Assembly (NCBI GenBank): GCA_001029295.1
Contig: LDXJ01000051.1
Coordinates: 1 to 64,000 of the forward strand
Length of the DNA stretch: 64,000 nt
Direction: 5' to 3'
DNA from: Peptococcaceae bacterium CEB3
GTDB lineage: Bacteria; Bacillota; Desulfitobacteriia; Desulfitobacteriales; Desulfitobacteriaceae
Of this stretch, positions 34,440-57,946 are shown piece by piece (position 1 is the stretch's first letter; every line of letters begins with the position of its first letter). A program made the translations under genes and the position numbers. The notes under the pieces are model-generated. The model was given only the letters and a program-made list of their open reading frames with translations. It was not told the DNA's origin and did no database searches.

Positions 34440-34578
34440 ACGACAGTGTCCTGTGAACACTATCGCCGAAGGCGCTTATCCCAAAAGGATACTTCGCAGC
34501 GAAGGCTGAGTCTGCCCCCACCGAAGCGGGGTACGTGGAACCCACTCCCACTTGTAGAAGTGAGAGTCTTACGCTTTG
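34440..34578 (+). repeat. IS200/IS605-type right end / omega-RNA-like remnant (copy 2)
   Basis: This 140-bp stretch upstream of mntH contains several short hairpins and ends in CACTCCCACTT-gtag-AAGTGAGAGTCTTACG. The same hairpin occurs at 3896-3919. The layout resembles the 3' end of TnpB elements, where a structured guide RNA scaffold ends at the right border. No tnpA or tnpB is nearby. The rest of the 34137-34439 gap shows no gene. Confidence 0.45.
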
Positions 34579-34608
34579 GATAAAAGAGTTCGGAGGAGGA
34601 GAAGAAAG

Positions 34609-35367
34609 ATGAGTGATGGGCTCAATTTACCCCGAAGTCTCACCCATAAGGCAGCTGTTCCCTTAAAACTAAGTAATACGAACAAAACGGTGGAAGCGTG
34701 CCGCGCGGCAATTGCCGGCCAACGAAAAGGAATCTTCGCTTTGCTCCCATTTTTGGGCCCCGCTTTCATCGCCTCCATCGCGTACATCGATCCCGGAAAC
34801 TTCGCCACTAACGTCCAAAGCGGGTCCGAATTCGGGTATAACATGTTGTGGGTCGTGGTTCTCGCCAATTTAATGGCGATGCTTCTGCAAAACATGTCGG
34901 CCAAGCTGGGTATAGCCACCGGCCAAAACCTGCCGGAGCTTTGCCGGATACACTTCAAAAAGTGGCTGTCTTTCACCATGTGGGGAGTCTCGGAAGTGGC
35001 GGCCATGGCCACGGATCTGGCGGAATTCTTGGGAGCAACCCTGGGGCTGAATTTGCTGTTCGGCCTGCCCATGCTCTATGCCGCCCTCCTCACCGGTTTA
35101 GTCACCTATCTTATTCTTATGCTGGATCGCTACGGCTTCCGGCCCTTGGAAAAGTTCATTGCCGCCTTTGCCGTGCTGATCGGGGCCTGTTATCTCATCG
35201 AGACTTTTCTTTCCCATCCGAACTTTGCCCAGGTCGCCTACCACAGTGTGGTACCCTGGCTGGGCGACAGGAACAGTATCATACTGGCCGTCGGTGTGGT
35301 CGGCGCCACCGTCATGCCCCCTACAGATAAACATATTATTAGGAGCCGGACTAACCTTGGGGATTAG
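34609..35367 (+). pseudogene. mntH: Manganese transporter MntH, truncated by insertion
   Basis: NRAMP-family Mn(II)/H+ symporter. The first half is intact, including the metal motif IDPGN (IAYIDPGNFATN) and about six TM spans. The family should continue VGATVMPHxLYLHS, but here the frame diverges after GATVMP at about 35319 and stops 16 codons later. The protein is about 250 aa instead of about 430 and lacks the MPH metal ligand and TMs 7-11. The start is ATG 34609 behind GGAGGAG. The recombinase gene just downstream points to element integration as the cause. Confidence 0.85.
35311..35335. other. Predicted element-chromosome junction (attL)
   Basis: Homology to mntH ends at about 35319, inside the codons for the MPH motif. 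Everything to the right is element-like, beginning with a terminator and a leftward tyrosine recombinase gene. The core sequence cannot be fixed because the other junction lies beyond the window. Confidence 0.6.
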
Positions 35368-35411
35368 ACCCATCACCAACCCCCGTGCTGACTTGTCGCG
35401 TGTGCCGCGAA

Positions 35412-35451
35412 AAGGGACCGGTCGGTATAATTTATCGACCGGTCCTTTTTT
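35412..35451 (+). terminator. Strong hairpin terminator at the element edge
   Basis: GGACCGGTCG and CGACCGGTCC pair perfectly (10 bp, 11-nt loop), followed by T6. It faces out of the mntH fragment and could insulate element genes from chromosomal transcription. Confidence 0.8.
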
Positions 35452-35650
35452 CGTTTCTAGGGCCTCTCTGAGGCCCGTAGGCACGTCTTAGCATTTTGAG
35501 CAACCCTAGGTTAATTTCATAGAGCTTTTTCATCCTCGGATGAATCTCTTTCCCGATCTTGGCCTCGTATTCACGGATCGTTCTGTCAATTTTGCGATCT
35601 ACGACTATACCTCCTCCCACGCAAGGTCCTTCAGCGCGATCCGCCGGCAC
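35432..35650 (-). CDS. Small hypothetical protein (doubtful)
   Basis: A short frame whose C-terminal 55 residues are charged and helical (IDRTIREYEAKIGKEIHPRM). It follows the 35605-35799 gene, whose last codons form a GGAGGAGG ribosome site, but no standard start codon lies at good spacing after it. It ends inside the terminator at 35412-35451. Coding status uncertain. Confidence 0.3.
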   Translation of the reverse strand: MPADRAEGPCVGGGIVVDRKIDRTIREYEAKIGKEIHPRMKKLYEINLGLLKMLRRAYGPQRGPRNEKRTGR

Positions 35651-35799
35651 TCCTCCATAAAGCGGAGCCGTTCATAAAGATCCTTCAGATCCGGATCGTC
35701 TGACGGGATCCCTTTTGCACGGAGAGCATGGATCCGATCTCTTACCAGCTTGATCCGTTTGTTCCAGATAGCCACCATCTTCGCTGGATGGATGCTCAC
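35605..35799 (-). CDS. Small hypothetical protein downstream of the integrase
   Basis: A 64-aa helical, charged protein (MSIHPAKMVAIWNKRIKLV...) whose start overlaps the integrase stop (ATGA-like coupling at 35796-35799). Not recognised. It might be an excision or DNA-binding accessory given its position, but no motif shows this. Confidence 0.5.
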   Translation of the reverse strand: MSIHPAKMVAIWNKRIKLVRDRIHALRAKGIPSDDPDLKDLYERLRFMEECRRIALKDLAWEEV

Positions 35800-36647
35800 A
35801 GATCATCACCCTCCTTGTGCCCCTCGACCGCCCGCTCCAGGTCACGCCAGCTCGGCTGCGTATAAATGGCCGTCGTGTCGATCCGGGAGTGACCAAGGAG
35901 CGCGGCCACCGTCACGATGTCCACGCCGGAGCGCAAGCGCCTGGTGGCGAATGTGTGCCTAAGCACGTGCGGAGTCACGCTTTCCGGCTCCAACTGTGCT
36001 TGATAGGCATATTTCTTGATCATATCCTGAACGGCACGCGGGGATAGATGCCCCGTCCGTACCCCCGGAAACAGGTACTCGCCCTGAACTTTAGTTAACC
36101 ATGGCCGGATCACTTCACGGGCGTCGCCGTTGGCCGGTACCTCCCTGCGTTTCATCCCCTTGCCGTTGCGGATCATCACTTTGCCTTTCCGCTCGTGTAG
36201 CTCCACATCCCTTGCCCGTAAAGACACTGCCTCGCTGACCCGGAGGCCGCAATATAACATCAGGCCTATAAGAGCACTATCCCGGAGATCGCCGGCCCTA
36301 CTTACGGCCCTAACGAGTCGCGCTTCTTCGGTCCTTTCCAGAGCCTTGGGAGCACGCCGGGGCTCCTTGAGATGCTTGGTAAAGACAGGCAGCTCAGGGA
36401 TAATCCTTTCCGCCTTGGCCCACTCAAGCCAGGCCCGGATCGCCGCTAAGCGACGATTAATGGTTGTTGGCTTGAGACCGCGGACCGTGAGCGCATGGCC
36501 GACGTAATCCCGCAGATCAAGTGTCGTCACGAGACCGGGAGCAAGGTCGCGGCCGTTCGTGTCTACAAACCAACGCGCAAAATCAACCAGGTCCTCGCCG
36601 TATGCCTTGGCCGTGGTTCTTCCAAGGGTTCCCAAAAAGTCTTTCAT
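35796..36647 (-). CDS. Tyrosine recombinase / integrase (XerC/D-like)
   Basis: A 283-aa phage-type integrase without an arm-binding domain. A SAM-like N-terminal domain (YGEDLVDFARWF) is followed by a catalytic domain with R136 in CGLRVSEA, H227-x-x-R230 in PHVLRHTFATR, H253 in LLGHSRIDTT and the nucleophile Tyr262 in AIYTQP. The start is the ATG at 36647, overlapping the upstream stop in ATGA. Adjacent to the mntH junction, it is the obvious enzyme for integration and excision. Confidence 0.93.
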   Translation of the reverse strand: MKDFLGTLGRTTAKAYGEDLVDFARWFVDTNGRDLAPGLVTTLDLRDYVGHALTVRGLKPTTINRRLAAIRAWLEWAKAERIIPELPVFTKHLKEPRRAPKALERTEEARLVRAVSRAGDLRDSALIGLMLYCGLRVSEAVSLRARDVELHERKGKVMIRNGKGMKRREVPANGDAREVIRPWLTKVQGEYLFPGVRTGHLSPRAVQDMIKKYAYQAQLEPESVTPHVLRHTFATRRLRSGVDIVTVAALLGHSRIDTTAIYTQPSWRDLERAVEGHKEGDDL

Positions 36648-37733: not shown

Positions 37734-38438
37734 CTATGCCGGCTCGTTTTCTGCCGCAAACGGATCCTCGGCTGCCATTTCCTCTGGTTCCTTTAGGAGG
37801 TCCGCGAACATTTCATCCTCGGCGTCCTGCGCGGAGCCGTATCGTTCATTCCGCACACGGATTACCTCGTTCAGGAACTCGTCGAAAGCACGCTCATTGC
37901 TCGGAAACTGCACATTTCTTACGATGTTGTCCGTGTTATAGAGCCTAGCCTTGAACAATTCCTGGACGCGATACGGTGGCAGGAACATTTTCCGAAGCAG
38001 TTTTTCTCCGGCATAATCATACACATCGTAGGAAAAACCACCACCTCCGGTCTTCCGGCAGTCGACAAGTATGTTGGTTAGGTTCCGGATCCGACTGTCA
38101 AGGTTACGAATGCTGGGAGAGGTCATGAAAAGACTGCTATGCAATTTGCGGAGGTAGAAGAAAAACTGGGTCATGTAGATGTTGGACCCCTTGCTGAACA
38201 TCCGGGAGTCAAGGTTTACATGCGCCTCGTCCATGACTTGGATGCTGTTGGGACTCCTGGCCACGTTATAGTAGTCCTTATAATGTGTCAGTGGCCTGGA
38301 ACCCCTTAATCCGTAATTGCTGTAGATGTCGACCAGCACTCCGGCCTTCTTGGCGCGGGCCGCGTAGTAATGTGCCAAAACACTGGCGCCAAAGGTTTTC
38401 CCGTCCCCCAGGTGGCCCTGGAACACCCACAAATACAT
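37734..38438 (-). CDS. Zot/pI-like P-loop ATPase (filamentous phage assembly)
   Basis: A 234-aa ATPase: Walker A GHLGDGKT (residues 8-15), Walker B IQVMDEAH (66-73), then LRKLHSSLFMTSPS and DSRIRNLTN (114-122). This is the pattern of Zot/pI proteins, in which an R/K-H segment is followed by a D-x-RIR sensor. In inoviruses this protein powers extrusion through the membrane. Unlike Ff pI it lacks a transmembrane helix and outer domain; the tail-anchored gene at 38802-39158 could supply these. FtsK/HerA-like packaging ATPases are the alternative family. Last large gene of the module, as gene I is in Ff. Confidence 0.8.
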   Translation of the reverse strand: MYLWVFQGHLGDGKTFGASVLAHYYAARAKKAGVLVDIYSNYGLRGSRPLTHYKDYYNVARSPNSIQVMDEAHVNLDSRMFSKGSNIYMTQFFFYLRKLHSSLFMTSPSIRNLDSRIRNLTNILVDCRKTGGGGFSYDVYDYAGEKLLRKMFLPPYRVQELFKARLYNTDNIVRNVQFPSNERAFDEFLNEVIRVRNERYGSAQDAEDEMFADLLKEPEEMAAEDPFAAENEPA

Positions 38439-39631: not shown

Positions 39632-40087
39632 TTATTCTCCTCCTCCACCGGCGATCCTTATGACGGCGTATGCGGTGATAATCCAGACAAAGACCGCCAT
39701 GATATACGCTATTGTGTTAAATCCTGTCTGGCCAAGAAATCCTGTCACGGCAGAAAATCCCTGCTGATAGGCGCTAGGGAGAGCGTAATAAGACGTGCTC
39801 CCGCTAAATCCCATCAAATCAGCAAACGTAGTAACTATTCCCCCGACGATCGCCGTTACCACCCCGAAAAGTCCCAAAACCACTCGGATGATGAGCACTA
39901 TCACCTGGAAAATCTGCGTGATGAGATACCAGATCCCGCCCAACAATAAAATGATCGGCCCAAATAGGGCCGTCAGAAAGCTCTTCAGAGCATTAAACAG
40001 GCCCGTAAAAACATTACCGAACCAATTGGCAATACTTGAGAGAGAATTGAAAAGCACTTGGAATAGACTTTGGAAAAACTGATACAT
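39632..40087 (-). CDS. Multi-span membrane protein, pVI-like
   Basis: A 151-aa hydrophobic protein with a long amphipathic N-terminus, paired spans at about 42-85 (ALFGPIILLLGGIWYL; VIVLIIRVVLGLFGVV) and a last span near 125-145. It sits between the large secreted proteins and the Zot-like ATPase. Gene VI of Ff, the hydrophobic minor coat protein, occupies the same place. The analogy rests on position and hydrophobicity, not sequence. Confidence 0.7.
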   Translation of the reverse strand: MYQFFQSLFQVLFNSLSSIANWFGNVFTGLFNALKSFLTALFGPIILLLGGIWYLITQIFQVIVLIIRVVLGLFGVVTAIVGGIVTTFADLMGFSGSTSYYALPSAYQQGFSAVTGFLGQTGFNTIAYIMAVFVWIITAYAVIRIAGGGGE

Positions 40088-40091: not shown

Positions 40092-40778
40092 TCAACTCCC
40101 CGGCGTTAAAGGTGGTTGTGCAGTAAGCGGAGCTTGGGGAGACAGGGGACCCTGGGCAGAAACAGGCTGGTCCTGAGAGACCGGCTGATTCGGGGAAACC
40201 GGAGCATCCGGCGTAGTCGGAGGTGACATCTGTGTAGAGGTCTGTGGCAGGGGAGGTTGGGCAGTTACAGGAGGTTGGGACGCTGTTGGACCTTGCGGCG
40301 TCAGCGGCGTGTCTGGCGTCACGGAGCCGGGAGAGAGTGGAGATTGCGCGGCTACCGGCGGCTGCGCCGTGGTCGGTGCCTGGCCGGAAACGGGCGCGTC
40401 TGGCGTAAGAGGTGTGTCACCGACCGTCGGCGCGTCATGCGGCATGACGGAGGGCGCAGGAATTGTCGGGAGGACGCCCGGCGTCTGCACGAACGTCGGC
40501 ATCTGCGGGGGAGGCGTGGTGTACGTGTACGGCTGGTTATTCGGTTCCCCCGGAATAGTGGGGACCGTCGGGTCGAAACTCGGCATAGACGGCTCAGGAA
40601 AAGAGACAGAGGGGTTTGTTGGTGTCGTGAGGTAGCTGGACAATCCTCCCAGGGTGTTATTGATGTTGCCTAATGTTGTATTGGTCTGTCCTAGTTGGTT
40701 CGTGATGGTGTCCAAGGTATTGCCTATTCCGGAAAGATCCGATGCTAAGGTGCCCTGGTTGTTGATAATGGTGGTCAA
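40092..40778 (-). CDS. Pro-rich C-terminal domain following a UGA, copy 1
   Basis: Read from a TTG at 40778 this is 228 aa. A polar coiled-coil-like head (TIINNQGTLASDLSGIGNTL and NQLGQTNTTLGNINNTLGG) is followed by about 150 residues of P/T/Q/S-rich repeats (APVSxQ, PLxPQ). It has only a poor start site. It lies in the same frame as the gene at 40815-42107, separated by a single UGA and twelve sense codons (DVVNAINALGGQ). I interpret it as a readthrough extension. Copy 2 at 42131-42823 is highly similar. Confidence 0.75.
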   Translation of the reverse strand: MTTIINNQGTLASDLSGIGNTLDTITNQLGQTNTTLGNINNTLGGLSSYLTTPTNPSVSFPEPSMPSFDPTVPTIPGEPNNQPYTYTTPPPQMPTFVQTPGVLPTIPAPSVMPHDAPTVGDTPLTPDAPVSGQAPTTAQPPVAAQSPLSPGSVTPDTPLTPQGPTASQPPVTAQPPLPQTSTQMSPPTTPDAPVSPNQPVSQDQPVSAQGPLSPQAPLTAQPPLTPGS

Positions 40779-40814
40779 CTGACCACCTAACGCGTTTATC
40801 GCGTTTACGACGTC

Positions 40815-42107
40815 TCAGAGAGTATCATTGCAGGGTGGGGGCGGCGGAGGAGGTGGCGTAGAAACCGTCAGAGCCGCCGTGCCGCTTGTCCCGTCGTATG
40901 TTGCGGTTATCGTACTGCTCCCGGCAGTTACGCCGGTAGCCGTGGCCCCTGATATGGTGGCCACGCCCGTATCGGAACTCGTCCACGTAGCACTTGAATG
41001 GACGTCAGAAGTTGAGCCGTCAGAGTAGTGAGCAGTGGCGGTGAAAGCTTGTGTACCGCCTACATCTATTGTTGCGGTGTCAGGGGAGACAGACAGAGAT
41101 TCCAGAGTGGGTGCAGAAGCCGCAGTCACGGTGAGGGAAGCAGTTCCGGTCATTCCGCCGTATGCAGCCGTAATTGTACAGGTTCCAGCGGCCTCCCCGG
41201 TGGCGTCATTGGCGGAAAGGGTCGCCACGCTTGTGTCCGAACTGCTCCACGTAGCTGCCGAGGTGATGCTGCTTTGCGATCCGTCAGAATAATGGGCCAT
41301 TGCCGTATAGTAGACTGTGCCTCCTACTTGTATCGAGGTTGTCGACGGCGACACTGTTATCGACTGAAGAGTGGGCGCAGTGGCGGTCACTGTAATCGTT
41401 CCGCTGCCGCTAAATCCGCCATACGTGGCAGATATAGTACTTGTCCCCGCCGAAACCCCCGATACTACATTGCCTGACATGGTGGCGACGCTTGTATCGG
41501 AGCTCGTCCATGAGGCGCTGGAAGTCACATCGGAACTGGATCCGTCGCTGTAATGGGCGGTTGCCGTAAAAGCTTGCGTATGCCCCACCTGAACACTTGC
41601 TGAGGACGGGGAGACAGTCAGACTCTGGACGGTGGGCGTGCTGTTATTGACGTAATTGCTTGTATCTGGCGCTGGCCACGTTGTCTCATTACCGTCGGAG
41701 TTCGTTGCCTGGTCGTACCAGAGGTACCTGTAGCCGCTAATGGATCCGCTTGTAAGCTCCAATTGGGCATAGCTCGCACCCGACGGAGGGGTTATGGAGA
41801 CATTCGTGCCACTGGTCCCAGACATACTTATCGTGGAACTGCTAATAAATGTGTTGCTTGAGTCAAACCAATTTATCAATCCGGTATCTCCCGCTTGTAC
41901 CAGATAGGATATCTCCGCTCCCGTAAACGTCGTACTGGGGTTGCTTACCCCGGCCATCAGGTGCTGGTCGTCAACGGTCGTGCTTGCGCTGTTGGTCCAA
42001 ATGTAGGCCGGAGTACTACTATTGGTCACTGTGGCCAGAGCGGGAAAGGGTAAGGTCAAGTTGACGAAAAGAATGACCAATGCTATGATCCATATCTTCT
42101 TAACCAT
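40815..42107 (-). CDS. Secreted Big_2-domain protein ending at a candidate readthrough UGA
   Basis: 430 aa to the UGA. Signal peptide (KKIWIIALVILFVNLTLPFPALA); an N-terminal beta domain of about 130 residues homologous to the gene at 42848-43381 (shared WYDQATNSDGNETTWPAPD-like block); then three Big_2-type Ig repeats of about 85 residues, each with SVQVGHTQAFTATAHYSDGS and SWTSSDTSVATMS-like lines; then P8-CNDTL-UGA. The same frame continues 240 codons beyond UGA, giving a 671-codon product. ATG 42107 has GGAGGAG. A likely adhesin or minor coat spike. Confidence 0.85.
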   Translation of the reverse strand: MVKKIWIIALVILFVNLTLPFPALATVTNSSTPAYIWTNSASTTVDDQHLMAGVSNPSTTFTGAEISYLVQAGDTGLINWFDSSNTFISSSTISMSGTSGTNVSITPPSGASYAQLELTSGSISGYRYLWYDQATNSDGNETTWPAPDTSNYVNNSTPTVQSLTVSPSSASVQVGHTQAFTATAHYSDGSSSDVTSSASWTSSDTSVATMSGNVVSGVSAGTSTISATYGGFSGSGTITVTATAPTLQSITVSPSTTSIQVGGTVYYTAMAHYSDGSQSSITSAATWSSSDTSVATLSANDATGEAAGTCTITAAYGGMTGTASLTVTAASAPTLESLSVSPDTATIDVGGTQAFTATAHYSDGSTSDVHSSATWTSSDTGVATISGATATGVTAGSSTITATYDGTSGTAALTVSTPPPPPPPPCNDTL

Positions 42108-42130
42108 TTTTTCTCCTCCGAGACTTATTG

Positions 42131-42823
42131 TTACGGACCGAGTGGGGGTTGAGGTGTCAGGGGGGCTTGAGGAGATAAGGCGGACTGGGCAGAAACAGGC
42201 TGGTCCTGCGAGACCGGCTGACTCGGGGAAACCGGGGCATCTGGTGTAGTCGGAGGTGACATCTGCGTTGAGGTCTGCGGCAGGGGGGACTGGGCAGTTA
42301 CAGGAGATTGGGACGCCGTTGGACCCTGCGGGATTAGCGGCGCGTCCCGAGCCACGGATGAGGGGGACAGGGGAGACTGTGGGGCCACGGGTGTCTGCGC
42401 CGCCGTGGGGGCTTGGCCGGAGACCGGCGTGGCCGGAGTTAGAGGAGGCTGGACATAACCCGGAGCGTCATGGGGCATAACGGTAGGGGCAGGGATGGTT
42501 GGCAGAGCCCCCGGCGTCTGGATGTATGTCGGCATCTGCGGGGGAGGCGTGGTGTACGTGTACGGTTGATTGTTCGGTTCCCCCGGAATGCTAGGCACGG
42601 TCGGATCGAAGCTCGGCATAGACGGCTCAGGAAAAGAAACGGAGGGGTTTGTCGGTGTCGTGAGATAGCTGGAGAGGCCTCCCAAGGTGTTATTGATGCT
42701 GCCTAACGTGGTATTGGTCTGTCCCAGTTGGTTCGTGATGGTGTTGAGGGTATTGCCTATGCCAGACAGGTCCGATGCTAAGGTCCCTTGGTTGTTGATG
42801 ATGGTGGTCAACTGACCGCCCAA
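42131..42823 (-). CDS. Pro-rich C-terminal domain following a UGA, copy 2
   Basis: 230 aa from a TTG at 42823, highly similar to copy 1 (same TIINNQGTLASDLSGIGNTL head and P/Q/S-rich tail). It is in frame with the upstream gene across UGA at 42848-42850. No good independent ribosome site (GGGCGG very close to TTG). In the interval from UGA to that TTG the two copies differ only at three synonymous third positions. Confidence 0.75.
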   Translation of the reverse strand: MGGQLTTIINNQGTLASDLSGIGNTLNTITNQLGQTNTTLGSINNTLGGLSSYLTTPTNPSVSFPEPSMPSFDPTVPSIPGEPNNQPYTYTTPPPQMPTYIQTPGALPTIPAPTVMPHDAPGYVQPPLTPATPVSGQAPTAAQTPVAPQSPLSPSSVARDAPLIPQGPTASQSPVTAQSPLPQTSTQMSPPTTPDAPVSPSQPVSQDQPVSAQSALSPQAPLTPQPPLGP

Positions 42824-42847
42824 CGCGTTTATCGCGTTTACGACATC

Positions 42848-43381
42848 TCAGAGAGTGCAGGTGCCACCAGATCCGCTACCTCCGGAACTGCCCGTAGTGG
42901 ACAATTGCGAGTCGGATGGTGTCGGGAAATTGGTCACGTTATTTTGGACATTTGTGGCTTGGCTAATCCATGCATAATTACCCCCGCCGCTGGATGAAGC
43001 GCACAATTCTAAATCGACTCCATAAGCATTTGTGGGGGCGTAATCTGTAAGTGGATCTAGTGGTGCATATACATAGCTCCCGTAAGGTCCATATTGATTA
43101 CTGCTTAGTAACGTTCCTGATTGGCTGTAATAATTGACTTTGACGTAGCTGTTGCCTTGCAACGCTACGTGGAATTGAATTTGTGACAGTGCAACTGTGT
43201 TATTGGCTTCGTCACCCCAGACTATTTGCGTTGACGCACTCTGCGGCGGCCCCCCGTCTGTCGGCTGTATTATAGCTACATACACTGGGGCCGGTGCCGT
43301 GTAGGTCGTTGCGTACGCGGGAGACAGACTTAGGATAAAAAACAGGAGAGTCATAACCGGCAAAAGTATTCGCCGTTTCAT
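42848..43381 (-). CDS. Secreted protein ending at a candidate readthrough UGA
   Basis: 177 aa to the UGA. Signal peptide (KRRILLPVMTLLFFILSLSPAYA), a beta-rich domain with QATNVQNNVTNFPTP homologous to the N-terminal domain of the Big_2 protein, a Gly/Ser linker and CTL-UGA. Reading on gives a 416-codon protein. ATG 43381 has GAGG upstream and overlaps the previous gene's end closely. Cys at the end (C-T-L-UGA) is shared in kind with the other copy (CNDTL-UGA). Confidence 0.8.
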   Translation of the reverse strand: MKRRILLPVMTLLFFILSLSPAYATTYTAPAPVYVAIIQPTDGGPPQSASTQIVWGDEANNTVALSQIQFHVALQGNSYVKVNYYSQSGTLLSSNQYGPYGSYVYAPLDPLTDYAPTNAYGVDLELCASSSGGGNYAWISQATNVQNNVTNFPTPSDSQLSTTGSSGGSGSGGTCTL

Positions 43382-47449: not shown

Positions 47450-47602
47450 TTAGCGGCGCCGGCCACCAAAGGCGGTCTTGGCTGCTCCTATGACCATGGG
47501 GGCGGCCATAATGCCGAGACCAATCGCAAGAATCGGCCAAATCGCGGTGAAAACTTGGCCCAGGTAAAGAAGGACATCCGACGCAGAAATACCTAACGAC
47601 AT
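47450..47602 (-). CDS. pVIII-like major coat protein candidate A (50 aa)
   Basis: A 50-residue protein with a strong AAGGAGG site. Short N-terminus with one acid (MSLGISASDVLLYLG), one hydrophobic span (IWPILAIGLGIMAAPMVIG) and a basic C-terminus (AAKTAFGGRRR). Length, single span and basic DNA-facing end match filamentous phage major coat proteins. It has no signal peptide, as in Pf3. Nearly identical to the next gene. Confidence 0.75.
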   Translation of the reverse strand: MSLGISASDVLLYLGQVFTAIWPILAIGLGIMAAPMVIGAAKTAFGGRRR

Positions 47603-47644
47603 GGGGGGCTACCTCCTTTCCAGAAAGAGTGGGACGAGAGGGGT

Positions 47645-47794
47645 TTAGCCGCGTCTGCCAAAAGCAGACTTGGCAGCACCAATAACCATCGGTGCGGCCA
47701 TGATGCCCAGGCCAATTGCAAGAATCGGCCAAATGGCGGTAAAGACCTGGCCCAGATAGTTGAGCACATCCGGAGCGGAAATGCCTAGACTCAC
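47645..47794 (-). CDS. pVIII-like major coat protein candidate B (49 aa)
   Basis: A 49-residue paralog of candidate A: GTG start at 47794 with GGAGGG upstream. Shares SLGISAPDVLNYLGQVFTA and the span IWPILAIGLGIMAAPMVIGA, ending AAKSAFGRRG. Differences between the copies are mostly conservative, and DNA third positions have drifted, so both are under selection. Either may be the main or a variant subunit. Confidence 0.75.
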   Translation of the reverse strand: MSLGISAPDVLNYLGQVFTAIWPILAIGLGIMAAPMVIGAAKSAFGRRG

Positions 47795-47810
47795 TTTGCT
47801 CCCTCCTCTC

Positions 47811-47969
47811 TCAATCGTCTTTGATTTTACGGAAAGCTGCTATTATGCCACCTAACACGAGACCGGCTAGCATTATGGCGAATGCCGGAGCTATGATAGG
47901 CCACAAACTTGTCATTGTAGAACTGAAAGCTTGGTAAAACAGGTTGATATTGTAATTGAGTGTCAACAC
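47811..47969 (-). CDS. Small membrane protein (52 aa) of the coat cluster
   Basis: GTG start at 47969 with AGGTGATG upstream; 52 aa. Polar N-terminus with NYNINLFYQAF, one span (WPIIAPAFAIMLAGLVLGGII) and a basic/acidic end (AAFRKIKDD). Same topology as the coat candidates but diverged; shares the W-P-I motif at the span's start. Confidence 0.7.
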   Translation of the reverse strand: MLTLNYNINLFYQAFSSTMTSLWPIIAPAFAIMLAGLVLGGIIAAFRKIKDD

Positions 47970-47983
47970 TTACATCACCTACA

Positions 47984-48139
47984 TCACCTATTCTGGTAGG
48001 CTTTTAAAATGTGTATAATGCCTCCGAACACGAACAAGGCCAAGAGCGCTCCGATAAATGGCCACAGAAGCGGAGTGAGGCTGCCAAATACATTGGCAAA
48101 CTGTTGGTATACGGAGGTCATATCAACGGTAAAACTCAT
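47984..48139 (-). CDS. Small membrane protein (51 aa) of the coat cluster
   Basis: 51 aa from ATG 48139 with GGGG upstream. N-terminal SFTVDMTSVYQQFANVFG, then WPFIGALLALFVFGGIIHIL and the basic end KAYQNR. Again W-P-F/I precedes the hydrophobic span, so it looks like a diverged member of the same coat-like family. Confidence 0.7.
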   Translation of the reverse strand: MSFTVDMTSVYQQFANVFGSLTPLLWPFIGALLALFVFGGIIHILKAYQNR

Positions 48140-48143
48140 CTCG

Positions 48144-48269
48144 TCATCCCCTACCAAATTTAAGAATTGCCGTGAAGACGGCTAGACCCAAGGAAATGAG
48201 CCCGAGAATGTCTATCAGAAAAGGATTCGACAGGAACCAGAACACGCAGGCGTTGAAATTGTAGTCCAT
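48144..48269 (-). CDS. Small membrane protein (41 aa) of the coat cluster
   Basis: 41 aa, MDYNFNACVFWFLSNPFLID then a second hydrophobic stretch (LGLISLGLAVFTAI) and the basic end LKFGRG. The start is ATG 48269, overlapping the end of the gene upstream; its stop lies just before the next gene's start. Confidence 0.65.
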   Translation of the reverse strand: MDYNFNACVFWFLSNPFLIDILGLISLGLAVFTAILKFGRG

Positions 48270-48270
48270 G

Positions 48271-48381
48271 TCATCGCCACCAGGTTATCAATTTGCCTAT
48301 CAGGTAGCTCGCAATGAACGGAGCCAAGATCACAAAAGCATAGACGGCAAGGAGTGAATGACTGTCCAAGACGGTCCACAT
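48271..48381 (-). CDS. Small membrane protein (36 aa) of the coat cluster
   Basis: 36 aa: MWTVLDSHSLLAVYAFVILA, a continuing hydrophobic segment and a basic end (GKLITWWR). Its ATG overlaps the stop of the upstream gene (TGATG), so it is translationally coupled. Size like pVII/pIX. Confidence 0.65.
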   Translation of the reverse strand: MWTVLDSHSLLAVYAFVILAPFIASYLIGKLITWWR

Positions 48382-48536
48382 CAGATATAACCCTCCCGAT
48401 CGGCAATGTCATAAAGGACCTTGACACCGACTAGGAGCGCGATCACCAGCAGGATACCGGCAATGATCATGTCGCCGTAACTCAGACTCTGTATGACTTC
48501 AAATACGCCATGAGGCGTTTGCACCTGGTAATTCAT
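48381..48536 (-). CDS. Small membrane protein (51 aa), first gene of the coat operon
   Basis: 51 aa from ATG 48536 with AGGTGA upstream. Polar N-terminus (NYQVQTPHGVFEVIQSLS), one span (MIIAGILLVIALLVGVKVL) and an acidic C-terminus (YDIADREGYI). The acidic end differs from the basic-tailed coat candidates and suggests another role, such as a cap protein. Confidence 0.65.
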   Translation of the reverse strand: MNYQVQTPHGVFEVIQSLSYGDMIIAGILLVIALLVGVKVLYDIADREGYI

Positions 48537-48553
48537 GCTAATCACCTACTTGC

Positions 48554-48599
48554 ATTATAGGCATATGATCCAGAGAACCGCAATGAACAAAAACTGTAC
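48554..48599 (-). promoter_or_regulatory. Promoter of the coat operon with shared 19-bp element
   Basis: Minus strand: GTACAGTTTTTGTTCATTG (48581-48599), overlapping -35 TTGCGG (48578-48583), an 18-nt spacer and TATAAT (48554-48559). The 19-bp element matches 39345-39363 at 18 of 19 positions, upstream of the Zot operon. A phage-encoded activator or repressor site is likely. Confidence 0.7.
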
Positions 48600-48604
48600 A
48601 AAAA

Positions 48605-48631
48605 GTGAAGCGCCTAACGTGTGTTAGGCGC
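48605..48631 (-). terminator. Hairpin terminator before the coat promoter
   Basis: On the minus strand GCGCCTAAC-acac-GTTAGGCGC followed by a T-rich run ends the upstream operon (48638 onward) and isolates the coat promoter. Confidence 0.75.
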
Positions 48632-48637
48632 GGTTTC

Positions 48638-49006
48638 CTATTCTTCTTCGGGAGTGTTTCCGGATTTCTTTAATTGCCTGAGCTCGTTTCTGAGCTCCGA
48701 CAAGGCGTGGGGAATGCAAAGGTAGTATCCCAGAAATCCTTCTCGCCCGAAGCGCGTCATGTCTATGGCCCGATATAAGCGCCCCGTGTGAGAACATAGC
48801 ATACATTTTCCGATCTGCGGCATGTTGGCCGCCGCGGCCTCCTCGGCCTCGGTCATTTCAGAGAGGAAAAAGTCTGCGTTTCCCGCTATGACGTACTTGT
48901 TCCAGCACTCAATATGAAAAACTTGTAATTTGCCGTTAAGGCGTCCCATGTGCGCGTCCAGGGGCTGAACTACCTTCTTGCACAAGCCACATTCCATAAC
49001 TTCCAT
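48638..49006 (-). CDS. Small zinc-binding protein
   Basis: A 122-aa protein with two potential zinc knuckles: CGLC...HIEC in the first third and CMLC...CIPH in the second, plus a Glu-rich tail. LIM- or treble-clef-like spacing. Not recognised as a named family. Last gene of the leftward accessory operon. Could be a regulator of the coat promoter just downstream, but no DNA-binding motif is certain. Confidence 0.65.
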   Translation of the reverse strand: MEVMECGLCKKVVQPLDAHMGRLNGKLQVFHIECWNKYVIAGNADFFLSEMTEAEEAAAANMPQIGKCMLCSHTGRLYRAIDMTRFGREGFLGYYLCIPHALSELRNELRQLKKSGNTPEEE

Positions 49007-49064
49007 TGTTTATCTCTCCTTTTTTATTCTTGTTAGGCGAATTTTACATATTCCTCCCGCAATA

Positions 49065-50036
49065 CTATTTAGCAGATATCGGCGGCATATCGTCCCAAGT
49101 CCGCCCATCCAGTAGGCGGCCAGCTTCCTTTTTGCCCCAATGCTTGAAGAAGAAAGGTACACCCGCTTCCTGGCATTGATCCCGTAGGCCCCGCACCCAA
49201 TCCGGATGCATCGGCCGGGCGTTGTGACCCGTCTCGGCACCCGCAATTACCCAGTCGAGCTTTCTAAGACCGTCATACTCATTCGTCATACTAGATTGAG
49301 GGTTCGACGCTTTGCCGTCCCAAGCCGCTAACCACCTTAGACTCACCGGCTCCAACAATGGCTCTGCACTAATAAAACGCACAGCGGCCGGTGTCTGTAG
49401 GAGCAGCGGAATTCGTTCGTCTGCCGTGGTTTGGTTCTCGACGGAGACACCGAACCAGACATTGGGCAGCGGGAATAGCTTGTTAGTATATCCCCAGGGC
49501 TTATATTCACTTCCTGAACTGTTTCTGCCATTTGAATCCCAATCGTGGCACGTCTCAGAAAACACTAATTCGCTGAAAAGCACGTCCGGATCTTCAACCA
49601 TTGCAACCCATTTCATTGTCTGTGCCCAGCGTTGGAGCAAATCTGACGGCGACGAAGATGTGAAATATCGCCGCATCCTTTCTGGACGTTTGGTGAGAAT
49701 CTGAAAGATATGATCCGGTTCGTTCTTAAATACTTTGCACGCCAATATCGTCCCGAACACCTCGTCCAGAAAATAATCCGGCACGTCATCGTGGAACAAA
49801 TCGCTCATAGAATTTACGAAGACACGGCGCGGCTTGCGCCAGTGCAGGGGAGCGTACAGTTTGTCGGGATGAAGGGTCACGCTGAAAGGATCGTGCGCCG
49901 GGTATCCACAGCGCCCAGCAAGACGTTTGGCCATGCGTTCGGCATAGCAATGCCGGCAACCGTCGGATACCTTGGTGCAGCCTGACACCGGATTCCACGT
50001 ATTGTCTGTCCATTCGATTTTAGATTTGACACCCAT
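49065..50036 (-). CDS. Phage Gp37/Gp68-like protein (DUF5131, radical-SAM-like)
   Basis: About 323 aa beginning MGVKSKIEWTDNTWNPVSGC, the hallmark of the Gp37/Gp68 phage family. The Cys cluster GCTKVSDGCRHCYAERMAKR resembles an iron-sulfur site, and VWFGVSVENQ, FISAEPLLEP and VIAGAETG are also conserved. Function not established; related to radical-SAM folds. The start is ATG 50036 behind AGAGGTG. Confidence 0.85.
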   Translation of the reverse strand: MGVKSKIEWTDNTWNPVSGCTKVSDGCRHCYAERMAKRLAGRCGYPAHDPFSVTLHPDKLYAPLHWRKPRRVFVNSMSDLFHDDVPDYFLDEVFGTILACKVFKNEPDHIFQILTKRPERMRRYFTSSSPSDLLQRWAQTMKWVAMVEDPDVLFSELVFSETCHDWDSNGRNSSGSEYKPWGYTNKLFPLPNVWFGVSVENQTTADERIPLLLQTPAAVRFISAEPLLEPVSLRWLAAWDGKASNPQSSMTNEYDGLRKLDWVIAGAETGHNARPMHPDWVRGLRDQCQEAGVPFFFKHWGKKEAGRLLDGRTWDDMPPISAK

Positions 50037-50080
50037 AGTTCGCACCTCTTTTATTCGTTTCTTTAAAGAAAAGGGTTGTT

Positions 50081-50389
50081 TTATCCGCTGTAATACATTA
50101 AGTGGTTCATCTTTCCTTGGAACATTCCAGAAAGAAGGCTTAAATTTTTATCCCTTTCCAGGGCATTAACAATATCTGTCTCTTCAAGCCTCGAATATTC
50201 GAGAAGTTTTTCGTATTTCTCCTTAATCTCGGCATTCAAGCTCTTTAGAACTTCGTTTTCTTTTGACAATTGATGGTTGACATCAATCAGTTCCATTATC
50301 CGTTCTGTGTAACGCTTCATCTCTTGTCTGATTTTGACCTCTTTTTCCTGAAAATGCTTTTCAGCTGCGGTAAACTTTTTGCCTTTCAT
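50081..50389 (-). CDS. Coiled-coil hypothetical protein
   Basis: About 102 aa, almost wholly helical with heptad-like leucines (MELIDVNHQLSKENEVLKSL). Starts at ATG 50389 (MKGKKF). No catalytic motif. Follows the 391-codon gene upstream with little gap. Confidence 0.6.
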   Translation of the reverse strand: MKGKKFTAAEKHFQEKEVKIRQEMKRYTERIMELIDVNHQLSKENEVLKSLNAEIKEKYEKLLEYSRLEETDIVNALERDKNLSLLSGMFQGKMNHLMYYSG

Positions 50390-50403
50390 GACAATTCTCC
50401 CTA

Positions 50404-51567
50404 TCACTCAAATAAACTTGGTTGCTCAATCTTTTTCATCTCCGGCAATTCCGCTATTTTTTTGATTAAGCGCGTGGATAGCCCAACCCGCTCAGCTATT
50501 TCCTCATAATCTTCCAATGCTTCAGATAACATTTCTTTGGTCTTATCAATTGTTTCCTGTTCCGTAATCCTTAGAAGTTTTTTGAGAACATTTTCTGGCC
50601 GTGCACGCTCCTCCCTTGCTTTCCTTCGTCGGTCACTCTTTACCTTCGCAGCCACTTTTCGGAGATCGCTATCGTGTCTGACCTCAATTCCCTCCTGTGT
50701 ATCCTGGAGGTCCTTCAACATGTCCCGTGATTCCCGTTTCTCAATCCGAATATTTAGTGGCGTAACGGAAAATTTACAGAAATCGTATTCCCCGTAGCCT
50801 GTATCCCCGTGATGTTCGCTAAAATATAGTTCTTTCCGGTCAATTGGCGTAAGCCCTGGTTTAAATTTCTCCTTATTTTCATTTTCCTTGATCCATATTT
50901 CTGCGTCGGTTCTAGCTATTGATTTTTCAAATGTTTTGACGCCCTTAGTTACGCTCCGTTCCGTATGCTCAATTAAACCTTTCCGGTAATGCCTTTCCCG
51001 AAGTACATCGTAAAAAATATTTACCCTTTCGAGGTTTCTAGGCTGCTTGGTTATGGCACAAACGCCATTTTTGCAGTCTCTATTAATGCAATTCTCTACG
51101 ATAAACCTCGGCACATACTTCCTTTTCCGTCTGTCCCAGACCATATTTTCACAGAATCCGCTTTTAATGGTCAGTTCTAGGAAGGCGGCATTTTTAATCC
51201 TGTCCCATTCGTCCCACAGCTTTTCAATGCTTTGCTCGTAGTTGTAGGATTTATCCGTCTGGTGCAGTGTGCAGTTCCATCCCCAAAGGTTTACTGTAGT
51301 GTGTCGATATTGGCATGGCTTTTCATCGAAATAGGGGCAGCCGTATCGCGGATTATCGTTTTCTGGGCAGTAATCGACGCCCATGGAACTGCCGTGATTG
51401 TACGAGTTAATTCCTTGTTTGAGTAATCCACATGGCGCTTCCCATACTGTGCTTATGAGGAATTCTCGCGTGTATTCGAAGTCGTTCCAACTTGACCACT
51501 CGACATAATCCGGATGACTGTCTTTGGTGTAGCCAGCTTCGAGTAGGCGTTCAGTAAGCTTGTTCAT
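50404..51567 (-). CDS. Cys-rich hypothetical phage protein
   Basis: About 387 aa. N-terminal third with cysteine pairs (CPYFDEKPCQYRH, WGWNCTLH) and NCINRDCKNGVCAI, then a long basic/acidic helical C-terminal part (KVKSDRRRKAREERARPENV) with an HTH-like segment (YEEIAERVGLSTRLIKKIAE), ending PSLFE. ATG 51567 overlaps the previous stop in ATGA. Possibly a DNA-binding protein with a metal or iron-sulfur site. Not recognised. Confidence 0.6.
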   Translation of the reverse strand: MNKLTERLLEAGYTKDSHPDYVEWSSWNDFEYTREFLISTVWEAPCGLLKQGINSYNHGSSMGVDYCPENDNPRYGCPYFDEKPCQYRHTTVNLWGWNCTLHQTDKSYNYEQSIEKLWDEWDRIKNAAFLELTIKSGFCENMVWDRRKRKYVPRFIVENCINRDCKNGVCAITKQPRNLERVNIFYDVLRERHYRKGLIEHTERSVTKGVKTFEKSIARTDAEIWIKENENKEKFKPGLTPIDRKELYFSEHHGDTGYGEYDFCKFSVTPLNIRIEKRESRDMLKDLQDTQEGIEVRHDSDLRKVAAKVKSDRRRKAREERARPENVLKKLLRITEQETIDKTKEMLSEALEDYEEIAERVGLSTRLIKKIAELPEMKKIEQPSLFE

Positions 51568-51764
51568 AGTCCCTGACAAGGCCTCATGCCGAAGAAATCT
51601 TCTAGCCGGCCCCTAACCTCGTCGATTGATACCTCGTATTCCTGAGCTAGGCACTTCTCGCAGACCGGATTTTTATAGCCTAAAGCTTTACTGCAACGGA
51701 TATCCCATGATGTCAGTTCTTGGCCGCAGGAACAATACTGGCCTGTCTGCCTAATGCCTTTCAA
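51564..51764 (-). CDS. Small zinc-ribbon protein
   Basis: A 66-aa protein from a TTG at 51764 behind GGAGG. CSCG and CEKC form a four-Cys zinc ribbon, followed by an acidic helix (YEVSIDEVRGRLEDFFG). Overlaps the next gene in ATGA. Unknown function. Confidence 0.6.
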   Translation of the reverse strand: MKGIRQTGQYCSCGQELTSWDIRCSKALGYKNPVCEKCLAQEYEVSIDEVRGRLEDFFGMRPCQGL

Positions 51765-52060
51765 AGTAATGCACCTCCGCTCCTCAGAGTCTCATCTTCT
51801 CCATCTTCCGAGTCTTTTTGTGGAGAAACCCATATTGCTTCCGCATCCATCGTCCACACTCCCTCCGCGCTGGCCAGGAAGGCGTAGAGTGCTTGTTCTG
51901 CCATAACCTGAGCCGCAGCCGGTGGAACCATGTTTCCGATCTGCTCACGCCAGAAGGCGTCCGAATTGCCCGCGAGCTGGAGAGGCTTGCCCTGCACTGT
52001 AAGCGGAAGTCTCTGAATGACGGCGAGCTCAAATGTCGTCAGCGGAAGAAGAAAAGTTAT
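51761..52060 (-). pseudogene. C-terminal remnant of a C5-cytosine DNA methyltransferase
   Basis: The frame encodes LTTFELAVIQRLPLTVQG then AGNSDAFWREQIGNMVPPAA. This is the end of C5-cytosine methyltransferases: motif IX region and motif X IGNxVPP. The catalytic PC and ENV motifs are absent and the frame upstream becomes a Gly/Tyr/Cys repeat. Only about 95 meaningful residues remain, so it is a truncated relic or a detached domain. Confidence 0.6.
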
Positions 52061-52182
52061 CTCAAAGCGGCAACCATCGAAACACCCATCATAACCACAG
52101 TACCCATCATAACCACACAACCCACAACAAAGAGAACCTCTCCAACAGCTTTGAGAATAAATTCCCGCCTGGAATCGTCCAC
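52057..52182 (-). CDS. Small membrane protein (41 aa)
   Basis: GTG at 52182 with a strong AAGGAGG site gives 41 residues: charged start (MDDSRREFILKAVG) and one hydrophobic span (EVLFVVGCVVMMG, TVVMMGVSMVAAL). The span is coded by an 18-bp tandem repeat (GTGGTTATGATGGGTACT). It overlaps the start of the methyltransferase remnant in another frame. Holin-like size, but function unknown. Confidence 0.5.
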   Translation of the reverse strand: MDDSRREFILKAVGEVLFVVGCVVMMGTVVMMGVSMVAALR

Positions 52183-52207
52183 AATACTTGCCTCCTTAGC
52201 GCTACCC

Positions 52208-52564
52208 CTAAACCATTTCTATCGGCGGCACAGGCAACTTTTCATTCTGCGGACGCCACAGATGGAGAACGTACGGACGCATATTCGCGTACTGAGCTTT
52301 AGGCGGGTGATACTGGACGGCGTATTCGTCCTCCCGGAAGAAGATGCCCTTGATGAGCGCCATTTCATGCCAGGTACAAGAACTTTTTTCGTTGCTTATC
52401 GAAACGTGATCCCAGCCCCCTCCCCAACTGAAGATTACTAGGGATGGTTTCTTCCTCGTGGGAAGATACACAAACGCCCATCCCCCGTCTTCTCCAGTGT
52501 CCTGTATCATGACTTCTCGACGTCGGTTGATTTCCTCCAAGCTTTTCACGCTCTCTTCACCCAC
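52208..52564 (-). CDS. Phage protein (DUF7694-like)
   Basis: A 118-aa protein with WGGGWDHVSISNEKSSCTWHEM and IKGIFFREDEYAVQYHPPKA, ending in HLWRPQNE. The W-D-H-V-S-x-S / H-P-P / H-L-W-R-P pattern recalls a small phage family seen in many Siphoviridae accessory regions. Function unknown. Confidence 0.7.
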   Translation of the reverse strand: MGEESVKSLEEINRRREVMIQDTGEDGGWAFVYLPTRKKPSLVIFSWGGGWDHVSISNEKSSCTWHEMALIKGIFFREDEYAVQYHPPKAQYANMRPYVLHLWRPQNEKLPVPPIEMV

Positions 52565-52818
52565 TCTTTCTGCGACACTATTTCATCCATAAAATACCAC
52601 CGGAACAAAATCTTGCGCCTGAACTTGAAAAGATTACGCTCGCTGTAACCCATTTCGCGCGCTATGGTCGGTATTGTTTTGCCCTCCGTGTAACGTTTCA
52701 GGGCAAATTCTCGGCAGTCTTCGTCCAGCTTGGAGAAGAATTCATCCACCATGGCCCTGCGGGTCGGGCTCAGAAATCTGTAAAGCTCCAGTTCACTCGG
52801 GTTTTTTAGATAAGCCAT
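52546..52818 (-). CDS. Small HTH regulator (sigma region 4-like)
   Basis: A 90-aa protein with an HTH: FALKRYTEGKTIPTIAREMGYSERNLFKFRRKIL. The form resembles phage late regulators such as ArpU/RinA or a sigma-70 region 4 module. It could act on the 19-bp promoter element of the virion operons; that is inference only. Confidence 0.65.
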   Translation of the reverse strand: MAYLKNPSELELYRFLSPTRRAMVDEFFSKLDEDCREFALKRYTEGKTIPTIAREMGYSERNLFKFRRKILFRWYFMDEIVSQKEWVKRA

Positions 52819-53221
52819 GGTTACCCGCCGCCTTCCTAGAATGACGAGAGAGAGTAAGACTCTTACTAAGACTGCTCGCCATCTTTATTTTGAACTCCTC
52901 ATATCGGCGCCTCAAACCAGTGGTCATCTCTGAGGATTTTAGCAAATAAAAAGTCATTTTTCCCACACTTACCATTCTCTCAGAAACTCCGTCCCTCAAA
53001 GCGTGCCGCATTAACAATTCACTTGGTACCGGCTCCATTTCCATGACCTTACTTGCTTGGATTAAAGTCATGTACATGCGGTTCTGCGTGTACTTCTGCG
53101 CCCATTTCATGAGTTTTACCGGCGAGTAACTGCTCGGATTGAAGTAGTAGCAGCGATAAGGTGACACGTGATAATTTGCTATCACGCGACACTTTTCTAC
53201 GGCGCGATCGACTGCGCTCAT
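52793..53221 (-). CDS. Hypothetical protein of the replication operon
   Basis: 142 aa. ATG 53221 overlaps the helicase-loader stop (ATGA). Aromatic N-terminus (YHVSPYRCYYFNPSS) and a basic C-terminus rich in S/R/K. Not recognised. Confidence 0.6.
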   Translation of the reverse strand: MSAVDRAVEKCRVIANYHVSPYRCYYFNPSSYSPVKLMKWAQKYTQNRMYMTLIQASKVMEMEPVPSELLMRHALRDGVSERMVSVGKMTFYLLKSSEMTTGLRRRYEEFKIKMASSLSKSLTLSRHSRKAAGNHGLSKKPE

Positions 53222-54096
53222 ACCCCTTTACCTCCTCCCGCACGCTGTTTCCGGTAGTCGTCCCCGGGAACAGCAACCAGATCACACATTTCGCGAATCC
53301 GACTGGAAATCCGCTTCCCGATGAGATCCTCCAGGATGTCCGGCTGGCAGTTCGTTGTAACGATAATCGGCAGATCATTGCGATACCGATAGTCGAACAC
53401 GGTGAAGAGTTTCTCAGTCGCCCAATCGTTCCCTCCTTCCCTGTGCCTCTCGGCTCCCAAATCGTCCAGGATCAGAATGTCACACTGTTTGACCACTCGA
53501 AGCAGATCTGCCTCACTGCTTGACGCTGTCACGCTGTACGTAGCCCGAATAGTGTCTAGCAACTCAGGCACGTTCTGGAATATGCACGCCTTCCCTTGTT
53601 TCGTCAGCTGGTTAAAGATTGCCGCAGCTATATGGCTCTTCCCTACGCCTACCGGTCCTACCAGCATGAACCCCTTAACAATGTCACGACCGGCTTTAGC
53701 ATCCGCCAGGAATCGGTGTGCCCTTCTTAAGCCCGCTGACGTACCTGACTTGGGTTCAAAATCCTCCAGGGTCTTCGAGTTGAATTTCTTACCAACTGTC
53801 GACCAGCCGAAATAACTAGCTACCTGACGCTGCTTCTCATACTCTGTCGCCCTCCTGACTATTTCGTTGTGCCTATCAACGGAACAGGTGCATCGGCCTT
53901 TGAGGTACCGGCTTCCCCCTAAAGCCGGCAGAAACTCGACCAAGATTGGTTTCACTAGCTTCCCACAGTCCTCACACACGTACTCAAGCTCAACTGGATA
54001 CCGTTCAGCTGGATACCGCGAAACCTGCTCGCTCCCATGCTGAGGGATCATAGCTTGCTGCATCGTCATACCGAGGACGTCGCTTATCTTGTGCAT
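53218..54096 (-). CDS. DnaC/DnaI-like helicase loader
   Basis: 292-aa AAA+ protein that loads the replicative helicase. An N-terminal zinc-type motif (CEDCGKL...GRCTC) is followed by GPVGVGKSH (Walker A) and ILILDDLGAE (Walker B), then sensor IIVTTNCQP and SRIREMC (arginine finger region). Overlaps the end of the DnaD-like gene by 92 nt, a common pairing in Gram-positive phages. It points to theta-type replication using the host helicase. Confidence 0.9.
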   Translation of the reverse strand: MHKISDVLGMTMQQAMIPQHGSEQVSRYPAERYPVELEYVCEDCGKLVKPILVEFLPALGGSRYLKGRCTCSVDRHNEIVRRATEYEKQRQVASYFGWSTVGKKFNSKTLEDFEPKSGTSAGLRRAHRFLADAKAGRDIVKGFMLVGPVGVGKSHIAAAIFNQLTKQGKACIFQNVPELLDTIRATYSVTASSSEADLLRVVKQCDILILDDLGAERHREGGNDWATEKLFTVFDYRYRNDLPIIVTTNCQPDILEDLIGKRISSRIREMCDLVAVPGDDYRKQRAGGGKGV

Positions 54097-55351: not shown

Positions 55352-55436
55352 AAATACCCTCCTGAAAGTCCTTAGTCAGTCTTAGGGACACTATGGAAAT
55401 GTGTGACATGTGATAGAGTCTCACAGTATGCGCCAC

Positions 55437-56865: not shown

Positions 56866-56889
56866 AGTGAATCCCTCCGTCCCCAATGA

Positions 56890-57015: not shown

Positions 57016-57022
57016 ATAGAAG

Positions 57023-57187: not shown

Positions 57188-57214
57188 CCGTAAATCCCCT
57201 TTCTCCTTCGGTTT

Positions 57215-57883: not shown

Positions 57884-57946
57884 TGTAATCCCTCCATATT
57901 TGTACTGAACTTTGTGGCAGCGCTTAGGTCTTACCCCTGTACTTTC

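What the first reader, a model, noticed from the sequence alone, without database searches (positions are those of the whole stretch)
40092..43381. Twin surface-protein genes interrupted by an in-frame UGA: probable programmed readthrough or recoding
Two paralogous secreted-protein genes (43381-42848 and 42107-40815) each end in ACT-CTC-UGA-GAY. In both, the same frame runs on without a stop for about 240 codons into a highly similar Pro/Gln-rich domain. Between UGA and the first possible TTG start the copies differ at three bases (GAC/GAT, TTA/TTG, GGT/GGC), all synonymous in the upstream frame, and the drift beyond also looks largely synonymous. A hairpin AACGCG-ATAAA-CGCGTT starts 9 nt after each UGA; in copy 1 a second stem (GGTGGTC-AGTT-GACCACC) follows. 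The TTG starts have poor ribosome sites. The likely output is a short abundant form plus a rare extended form, as with the Q-beta A1 protein. UGA-directed selenocysteine (context C-x-x-U in one copy) is a less likely alternative.
Basis: partly seen in the sequence, partly recalled or inferred. Interest (0 to 1): 0.92.

Follow-up and report, generated by a model that had tools for sequence, protein, structure and literature searches.

The report
Selenocysteine in a phage surface protein
Two neighbouring prophage surface-protein genes carry a UGA that looks like a stop but is very probably read as the rare amino acid selenocysteine, because related phages keep the UGA, a nearby cysteine and the matching RNA hairpin; I found no earlier report of such a protein in a phage in the literature I could search.

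Summary

Homologs in six other elements are single open frames, so head and Pro-rich tail are one protein. Three further copies (Desulfosporosinus metallidurans, a second Desulfosporosinus, and the active Moorella phage MCACPph1) keep the in-frame UGA.

All five UGA copies have a Cys within five residues (CTLU twice, CDLU, CNDTLU, UTC) and a downstream hairpin with an AGUU apical loop, 34 nt (26 in the phage) after the UGA. Its stem changes with compensation. The host's own UGA-containing formate dehydrogenase uses the same AGUU loop. The host encodes SelA, SelB, SelD and tRNA-Sec. The frame after the UGA is under purifying selection (dN/dS about 0.1).

Best explanation: a phage-encoded selenoprotein with a β-sandwich head, a Cys/Sec pair at the head–stalk joint, a helical stalk and a Pro-rich tail. 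UGA decoding as Sec is strongly supported but not measured. The role of Sec (redox cross-link, or making the full-length form depend on selenium) is inferred. The mechanism is known; its use in a phage surface protein appears new.

The parts
42131..43381 (-). Copy 1: one recoded ORF of 416 residues (signal peptide, beta-sandwich head, linker, Cys175-Thr-Leu-Sec178, helical stalk, Pro-rich tail)
   Evidence: fused homologs; model
42848..42850 (-). In-frame UGA of copy 1, read as Sec178 (inferred)
   Evidence: UGA and nearby Cys kept in L017, L049, L020
42822..42838 (-). Copy 1 hairpin 1, AACGCG-AUAAA-CGCGUU, probable spacer between UGA and SECIS
   Evidence: structure kept with compensation; spacer role inferred from distances
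42803..42820 (-). Copy 1 SECIS-type hairpin GGCGGUC-AGUU-GACCACC (one C-A mismatch), loop 34 nt after the UGA
   Evidence: same loop as host Fdh
40092..42107 (-). Copy 2: recoded ORF of 671 residues, as copy 1 but with three Big_2 Ig-like domains between head and junction; Cys426-N-D-T-L-Sec431
40815..40817 (-). In-frame UGA of copy 2, read as Sec431 (inferred)
   Evidence: As for copy 1
40789..40805 (-). Copy 2 hairpin 1 (probable spacer)
40770..40787 (-). Copy 2 SECIS-type hairpin GGUGGUC-AGUU-GACCACC, loop 34 nt after the UGA
39632..40087 (-). Conserved 151-aa hydrophobic protein next to the Sec gene in most related elements; used as the marker to find them
37734..38438 (-). P-loop ATPase of the element, weakly like M13 protein I / Zot
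   Evidence: phrog_1675 E=0.0014, phrog_197 E=0.008; conserved in L017 and L020
35796..36671 (-). Tyrosine integrase of the element
   Evidence: PF00589, 2.7e-38

Best explanation
Each gene encodes one continuous phage surface protein in which the UGA is decoded as selenocysteine. Translation makes the signal peptide and head. At the UGA, the host's SelB with Sec-tRNA(Sec), bound to an AGUU-loop SECIS hairpin 34 nt downstream, inserts Sec, and the ribosome continues into a helical stalk and Pro-rich tail. A 17-nt hairpin between UGA and SECIS loops out the extra RNA, leaving 17 nt, close to the 18 nt in the host's own formate dehydrogenase gene. When Sec is not inserted, termination leaves a head-only protein. 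Sec sits next to a Cys at the joint between head and stalk, so the most likely chemical role is a redox-labile selenylsulfide, within or between chains of the stalk. Shown here: conserved UGA, conserved and covarying hairpin, Cys pairing, purifying selection on the downstream frame, host machinery, fused homologs. Inferred: actual Sec insertion, the spacer role of hairpin 1, the two-product output, the chemical role of Sec (about 0.4), and location on the virion.
For: In-frame UGA kept in three further diverged copies: D. metallidurans, another Desulfosporosinus, Moorella phage MCACPph1. Six homologs are uninterrupted fusions. A Cys within five residues of the UGA in 5 of 5 copies, absent near the junction in 5 of 6 sense homologs. 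AGUU-loop hairpin after all five UGAs, at 34 or 26 nt, within the published bSECIS range of 16-37 nt with G in the first two loop positions (PMC13188914). Covariation: 96.2% of cells paired, five pairs changed on both sides, 0 of 500 shuffles reach the score, slid structures pair at 27-42%. The host's own UGA-containing Fdh has GGUGGCA-AGUU-UGUCACC, same loop. Host has selB, tRNA-Sec, selA and selD with one TGA. dN/dS 0.10 after the UGA. Chance controls.
Against: No direct evidence of Se in the protein. Sense homologs do not have Cys at the aligned position (Ser in L019 and L041), unlike most known selenoproteins. Spacing of 34 nt is near the upper end of the usual range. Copy 1's stem has one mismatch. 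There is no bulged U like E. coli U17, although the host's own AGUU Fdh hairpin has none either. The covariation set is only four sequences. All sense-homolog hosts tested also have selA, so host distribution does not discriminate.
Confidence: 0.9

Rival explanations
1. Generic programmed readthrough, as in Q-beta A1: a near-cognate tRNA (for example tRNA-Trp) reads the UGA at low rate, helped by downstream RNA structure, and the amino acid inserted does not matter.
For: Conserved UGA, conserved downstream structure and fused homologs fit this too.
Against: Gives no reason for a Cys beside every UGA (5 of 5) nor for an AGUU loop identical to that of the host's own Sec gene. The host has the complete Sec machinery, and an AGUU hairpin after a UGA should be read by SelB. 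No sense homolog has Trp at the site.
Confidence: 0.07
2. Two separate genes: the head gene ends at the UGA and a second gene starts at a TTG (or GTG) downstream.
For: One search lists such ORFs; GenBank annotates MCACPph1 this way (CDS0029 and CDS0030).
Against: Codons between the UGA and the first start are conserved as protein; dN/dS continues; six fused homologs; no signal peptide on the second part; weak ribosome sites. The TTG shared by the four Desulfosporosinus-type copies is part of the C-AGUU-G hairpin tip and is absent in the Moorella phage.
Confidence: 0.02
3. Decayed genes, or a reassigned UGA codon in the element.
For: The UGA does interrupt a protein that is continuous elsewhere.
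Against: Same UGA in diverged elements, no frame decay, dN/dS about 0.1. TGA is used as an ordinary terminator by other genes of the element and by copy 2 itself.
Confidence: 0.01

Closest known systems
Bacterial selenoproteins with an in-frame bSECIS, e.g. formate dehydrogenases of the same hosts (L064, L066)
   Same: In-frame UGA, downstream hairpin with the same AGUU loop, host SelA/SelB/SelD/tRNA-Sec
   Different: Those are redox enzymes with Sec in the active site and the loop 18 nt from the UGA. Here the carrier is a phage surface protein, Sec lies in a linker, the loop is 34 or 26 nt away, and the 34-nt copies carry an extra hairpin in between
Q-beta A1 readthrough coat protein
   Same: Viral surface protein with a head and an extension reached through a UGA, giving short and long products
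   Different: Q-beta readthrough is by an ordinary tRNA (own knowledge); here a SECIS-type element, Cys partners and host Sec decoding point to Sec
Poxvirus glutathione peroxidase selenoproteins (PMC8310308)
   Same: Virus-encoded selenoproteins
   Different: Captured host enzymes with eukaryotic SECIS elements; here a virus's own surface protein with a bacterial SECIS

Membership tests
Bacterial selenoprotein (bSECIS-dependent) | In-frame UGA conserved among homologs with coding continuing after it | tested here: met
   Five copies in four elements; dN/dS 0.10
Bacterial selenoprotein (bSECIS-dependent) | Hairpin with a small apical loop, G in the first two positions, 16-37 nt after the UGA | tested here: met
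   AGUU at 34 or 26 nt in all five; criteria from PMC13188914
Bacterial selenoprotein (bSECIS-dependent) | Hairpin maintained by compensatory change | tested here: met
   four sequences
Bacterial selenoprotein (bSECIS-dependent) | Host encodes SelA, SelB, SelD and tRNA-Sec | tested here: met
   Window host. The two Desulfosporosinus hosts: selA and selD. Moorella host not tested
Bacterial selenoprotein (bSECIS-dependent) | Cys at the Sec position in homologs (usual, not defining) | tested here: not met
   Ser at the aligned position in L019 and L041; no Cys there in any sense homolog
Bacterial selenoprotein (bSECIS-dependent) | E. coli-type bulged U17 in the stem (E. coli feature, not general) | tested here: not met
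   No bulge in the four Desulfosporosinus-type hairpins, but also none in the host's AGUU Fdh hairpin
Bacterial selenoprotein (bSECIS-dependent) | Selenium present in the protein | not testable with these tools
   Needs 75Se labelling or mass spectrometry
Q-beta-type readthrough | Ordinary amino acid inserted by a near-cognate tRNA, independent of SelB | not testable with these tools
   Indirect evidence points away
Inoviridae (for the element) | pI/Zot-type morphogenesis ATPase | tested here: inconclusive
   Only weak PHROG matches; no Pfam or NCBIfam match
Inoviridae (for the element) | 5.5-10.6 kb ssDNA genome with rolling-circle replication (PMC8491893 abstract) | tested here: not met
   MCACPph1 is 20 kb with an initiator matching DnaD-like loader and replication initiation families; window element has DnaB_2 and IstB/DnaC-like proteins. 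Not filed as an inovirus

The most novel reading that the evidence does not exclude
A bacterial virus uses host selenocysteine decoding in a non-enzymatic surface (probably receptor-binding) protein. The Cys/Sec pair forms a redox-labile cross-link at the head-stalk joint, and production of the full-length form depends on the host's selenium status. It would be the first phage selenoprotein and a structural rather than catalytic use of Sec.
Probability: 0.4. Interest if true: 0.9.

Novelty: new variant of a known kind. Interest (0 to 1): 0.83.

Why it matters
Known bacterial selenoproteins are mostly redox enzymes and selenium-metabolism proteins (own knowledge). A phage surface protein with Sec, shared by Desulfosporosinus-type prophages and an active Moorella phage, would extend Sec use to bacterial viruses. 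It would tie phage production to host selenium and give a natural case in which Sec sits in a fibrous joint rather than an active site. It also shows that gene callers split such genes in two (MCACPph1 CDS0029/CDS0030), so phage selenoproteins are probably being missed. The prediction can be tested in a deposited strain, Moorella carbonis DSM 116161, reported to release these particles.

Tried and rejected
Separate genes from TTG: rejected (conserved codons before it, fused homologs, TTG is part of the hairpin tip). Code reassignment: rejected (TGA ends other genes of the element). Explaining UGA versus sense by presence of Sec machinery in the host: did not work, since all nine hosts tested have selA. 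Rfam gathering scan of the window: only 16S rRNA. Viral-contig scans with the tail, with the Moorella neighbour protein and with a C-x-L-UGA DNA pattern: nothing new; plasmids: nothing. A repeat phylum-wide search drew what looks like the same genomes. Fold comparison of the model gave only weak, generic phage tailspike/depolymerase-type beta-sandwich matches, not relied on. Direct repeats of 14 nt or more between 35000-35900 and 47500-63900 as att sites: none.

Full report
OBSERVATION. The two genes and their in-frame UGAs are present as described. Paralog similarity starts exactly at ACTCTCTGA: upstream the heads differ, downstream the proteins are 95% identical over the first 129 residues. 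Substitutions after the UGA are mostly synonymous in this frame (dN 0.074, dS 0.740 over 235 codons; the other two frames show the reverse). One detail is corrected: the perfect second stem is in copy 2, and copy 1 has one C-A mismatch.

HOST. The window's genome is in the same family as Desulfosporosinus metallidurans (G040 contig 28 has the length of NZ_MLBF01000028.1, 56,805 bases). It has selB (C63:39264-41129; GTPase and SelB winged-helix domains), a tRNA-Sec with anticodon TCA about 10 kb away, selA and a selD that itself contains one in-frame TGA. It also has formate dehydrogenase genes with an in-frame TGA. The host is therefore equipped to decode UGA as Sec.

HOMOLOGS WITH UGA. D. metallidurans (L017)...TTTCTL-UGA-DVVNAINALSSQLATI. 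A second Desulfosporosinus-group genome (G041, same genus label as D. metallidurans; L049)...TPTCDL-UGA-QVLDAITAIGSQLT. Moorella phage MCACPph1 (L020)...SDGST-UGA-TCNVDFSPVVTELQ, annotated as two hypothetical proteins. This 20-kb region was found active by sequencing DNA from isolated phage particles of Moorella carbonis (PMC11328732), so it is an active phage.

HOMOLOGS WITHOUT UGA. Six related elements (L019, L039 = L031, L040, L041, L042, L043) have one uninterrupted ORF from signal peptide through head to Pro-rich tail. L019 and L041 read NS-EVVAELRNIGNQL and NS-DVVSALNEVKSQL where the window copies read LU-DVVNAINALGGQL. This argues strongly against the two-gene reading and shows that the full-length protein is the conserved product.

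THE CYS PARTNER. In all five UGA proteins a Cys lies 2-5 residues from the UGA (CTLU twice, CDLU, CNDTLU, UTC). In five of the six sense homologs there is no Cys near the junction; the sixth and most diverged, L043, has one at the end of its head and lacks the coil. The order of the pair is reversed in the Moorella phage. A readthrough signal gives no reason for this; a Cys/Sec pair does.

THE RNA. In the four Desulfosporosinus-type copies the loop AGUU starts 34 nt after the UGA. Stems are GGCGGUC/GACCACC, GGUGGUC/GACCACC, AGUAGCC/GGCUACU and GGGAGUC/GACUCCU. Counting pairs on the ungapped alignment: 96.2% of cells paired, five pairs with changes on both sides, no shuffle reaching the covariation score, and slid structures pairing at 27-42%. 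In D. metallidurans the stem change goes with amino acid changes (GG to SS, T to A), so the RNA appears selected beyond the protein. In the Moorella phage the hairpin CGGU-AGUU-ACCG is 26 nt after the UGA. A host Fdh gene (L066) has UGA, 18 nt, then the loop of GGUGGCA-AGUU-UGUCACC. Published bSECIS criteria are a small loop with G in its first two positions, 16-37 nt from the UGA (PMC13188914). In E. coli, G23 and U24 of the apical loop matter (PMC8659212); AGUU offers G and U at positions 2 and 3. The 17-nt hairpin 1 leaves 17 nt if looped out (9 + 1 + 7), close to Fdh's 18; this spacer role is my inference.

CHANCE. Among 349 TGA codons after at least 100 open codons in the held DNA, 8 have a perfect hairpin of 6 bp or more of SECIS type. 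Two are in-frame UGAs of formate dehydrogenases, three are in-frame UGAs of this family (the only AGUU loops), and three are others. Shuffling the 60 nt after each UGA gives an AGUU hairpin of 4 bp or more in 0.02-0.08% of cases.

THE PROTEIN. A model of copy 1 with the UGA read as Cys (mean pLDDT 58, so only the outline is used) gives a beta-sandwich head at 26-151, a flexible linker, a helix at 176-236 of low confidence and a disordered Pro-rich tail. Sec178 would be at the start of the helix, next to C175. Profile search finds coiled coils for the helix. Head matches are weak and of phage tail-spike type. I infer a surface or receptor-binding protein with a stalk; the Cys/Sec pair could link stalk chains or act as a redox switch. 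The function of Sec is the weakest part of the explanation (about 0.4).

THE ELEMENT. Integrase, a P-loop ATPase weakly like M13 protein I/Zot, several FN3 secreted proteins, a glycosyltransferase, DnaB_2 and DnaC-like replication proteins and an actin-like protein. The Caudovirales assignment of MCACPph1 in PMC11328732 rests on a protein called central tail fiber J, which corresponds in position to the FN3 protein of the other elements; no terminase, portal or capsid gene is among its 42 annotated features.

LITERATURE. Searches for phage or viral selenoproteins found no phage selenoprotein; poxvirus glutathione peroxidases are viral selenoproteins already described. The 2026 review of the prokaryotic selenoproteome does not mention phage or virus. 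The library holds only open-licence papers, so priority is not proven.

VERDICT. Sec decoding at both UGAs: 0.9. Generic readthrough: 0.07. The mechanism is known; the carrier appears new. New variant of a known kind.

Noticed in passing
L020:14184-15356 (OR602863.1): GenBank splits the Moorella phage gene into CDS0029 and CDS0030 at the UGA; its central tail fiber J call sits where the other elements have an FN3 protein, and no terminase, portal or capsid is annotated, so the tailed-phage assignment is doubtful.
   Followed up: partly
window 35796-56886: The prophage carries an integrase, DnaC-like and DnaB_2 replication proteins, an actin-like ParM/Alp protein (55792-56886) and a DUF5131 protein (49065-50045), and may have a plasmid-like stage. 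Its ends were not found.
   Followed up: partly
window 34576-35367: An NRAMP-like transporter frame beside the integrase appears cut short; possible insertion target or a decayed gene.
   Followed up: no
L064, L066, L054-L057: Within one host two SECIS loop types occur: GGUC in one formate dehydrogenase class and AGUU in another; the phage genes use the AGUU type.
   Followed up: partly
window 40092-42107: The two copies share stalk and tail but have different heads, copy 2 with three Big_2 domains inserted; this suggests duplication followed by head exchange at the UGA/SECIS block.
   Followed up: partly
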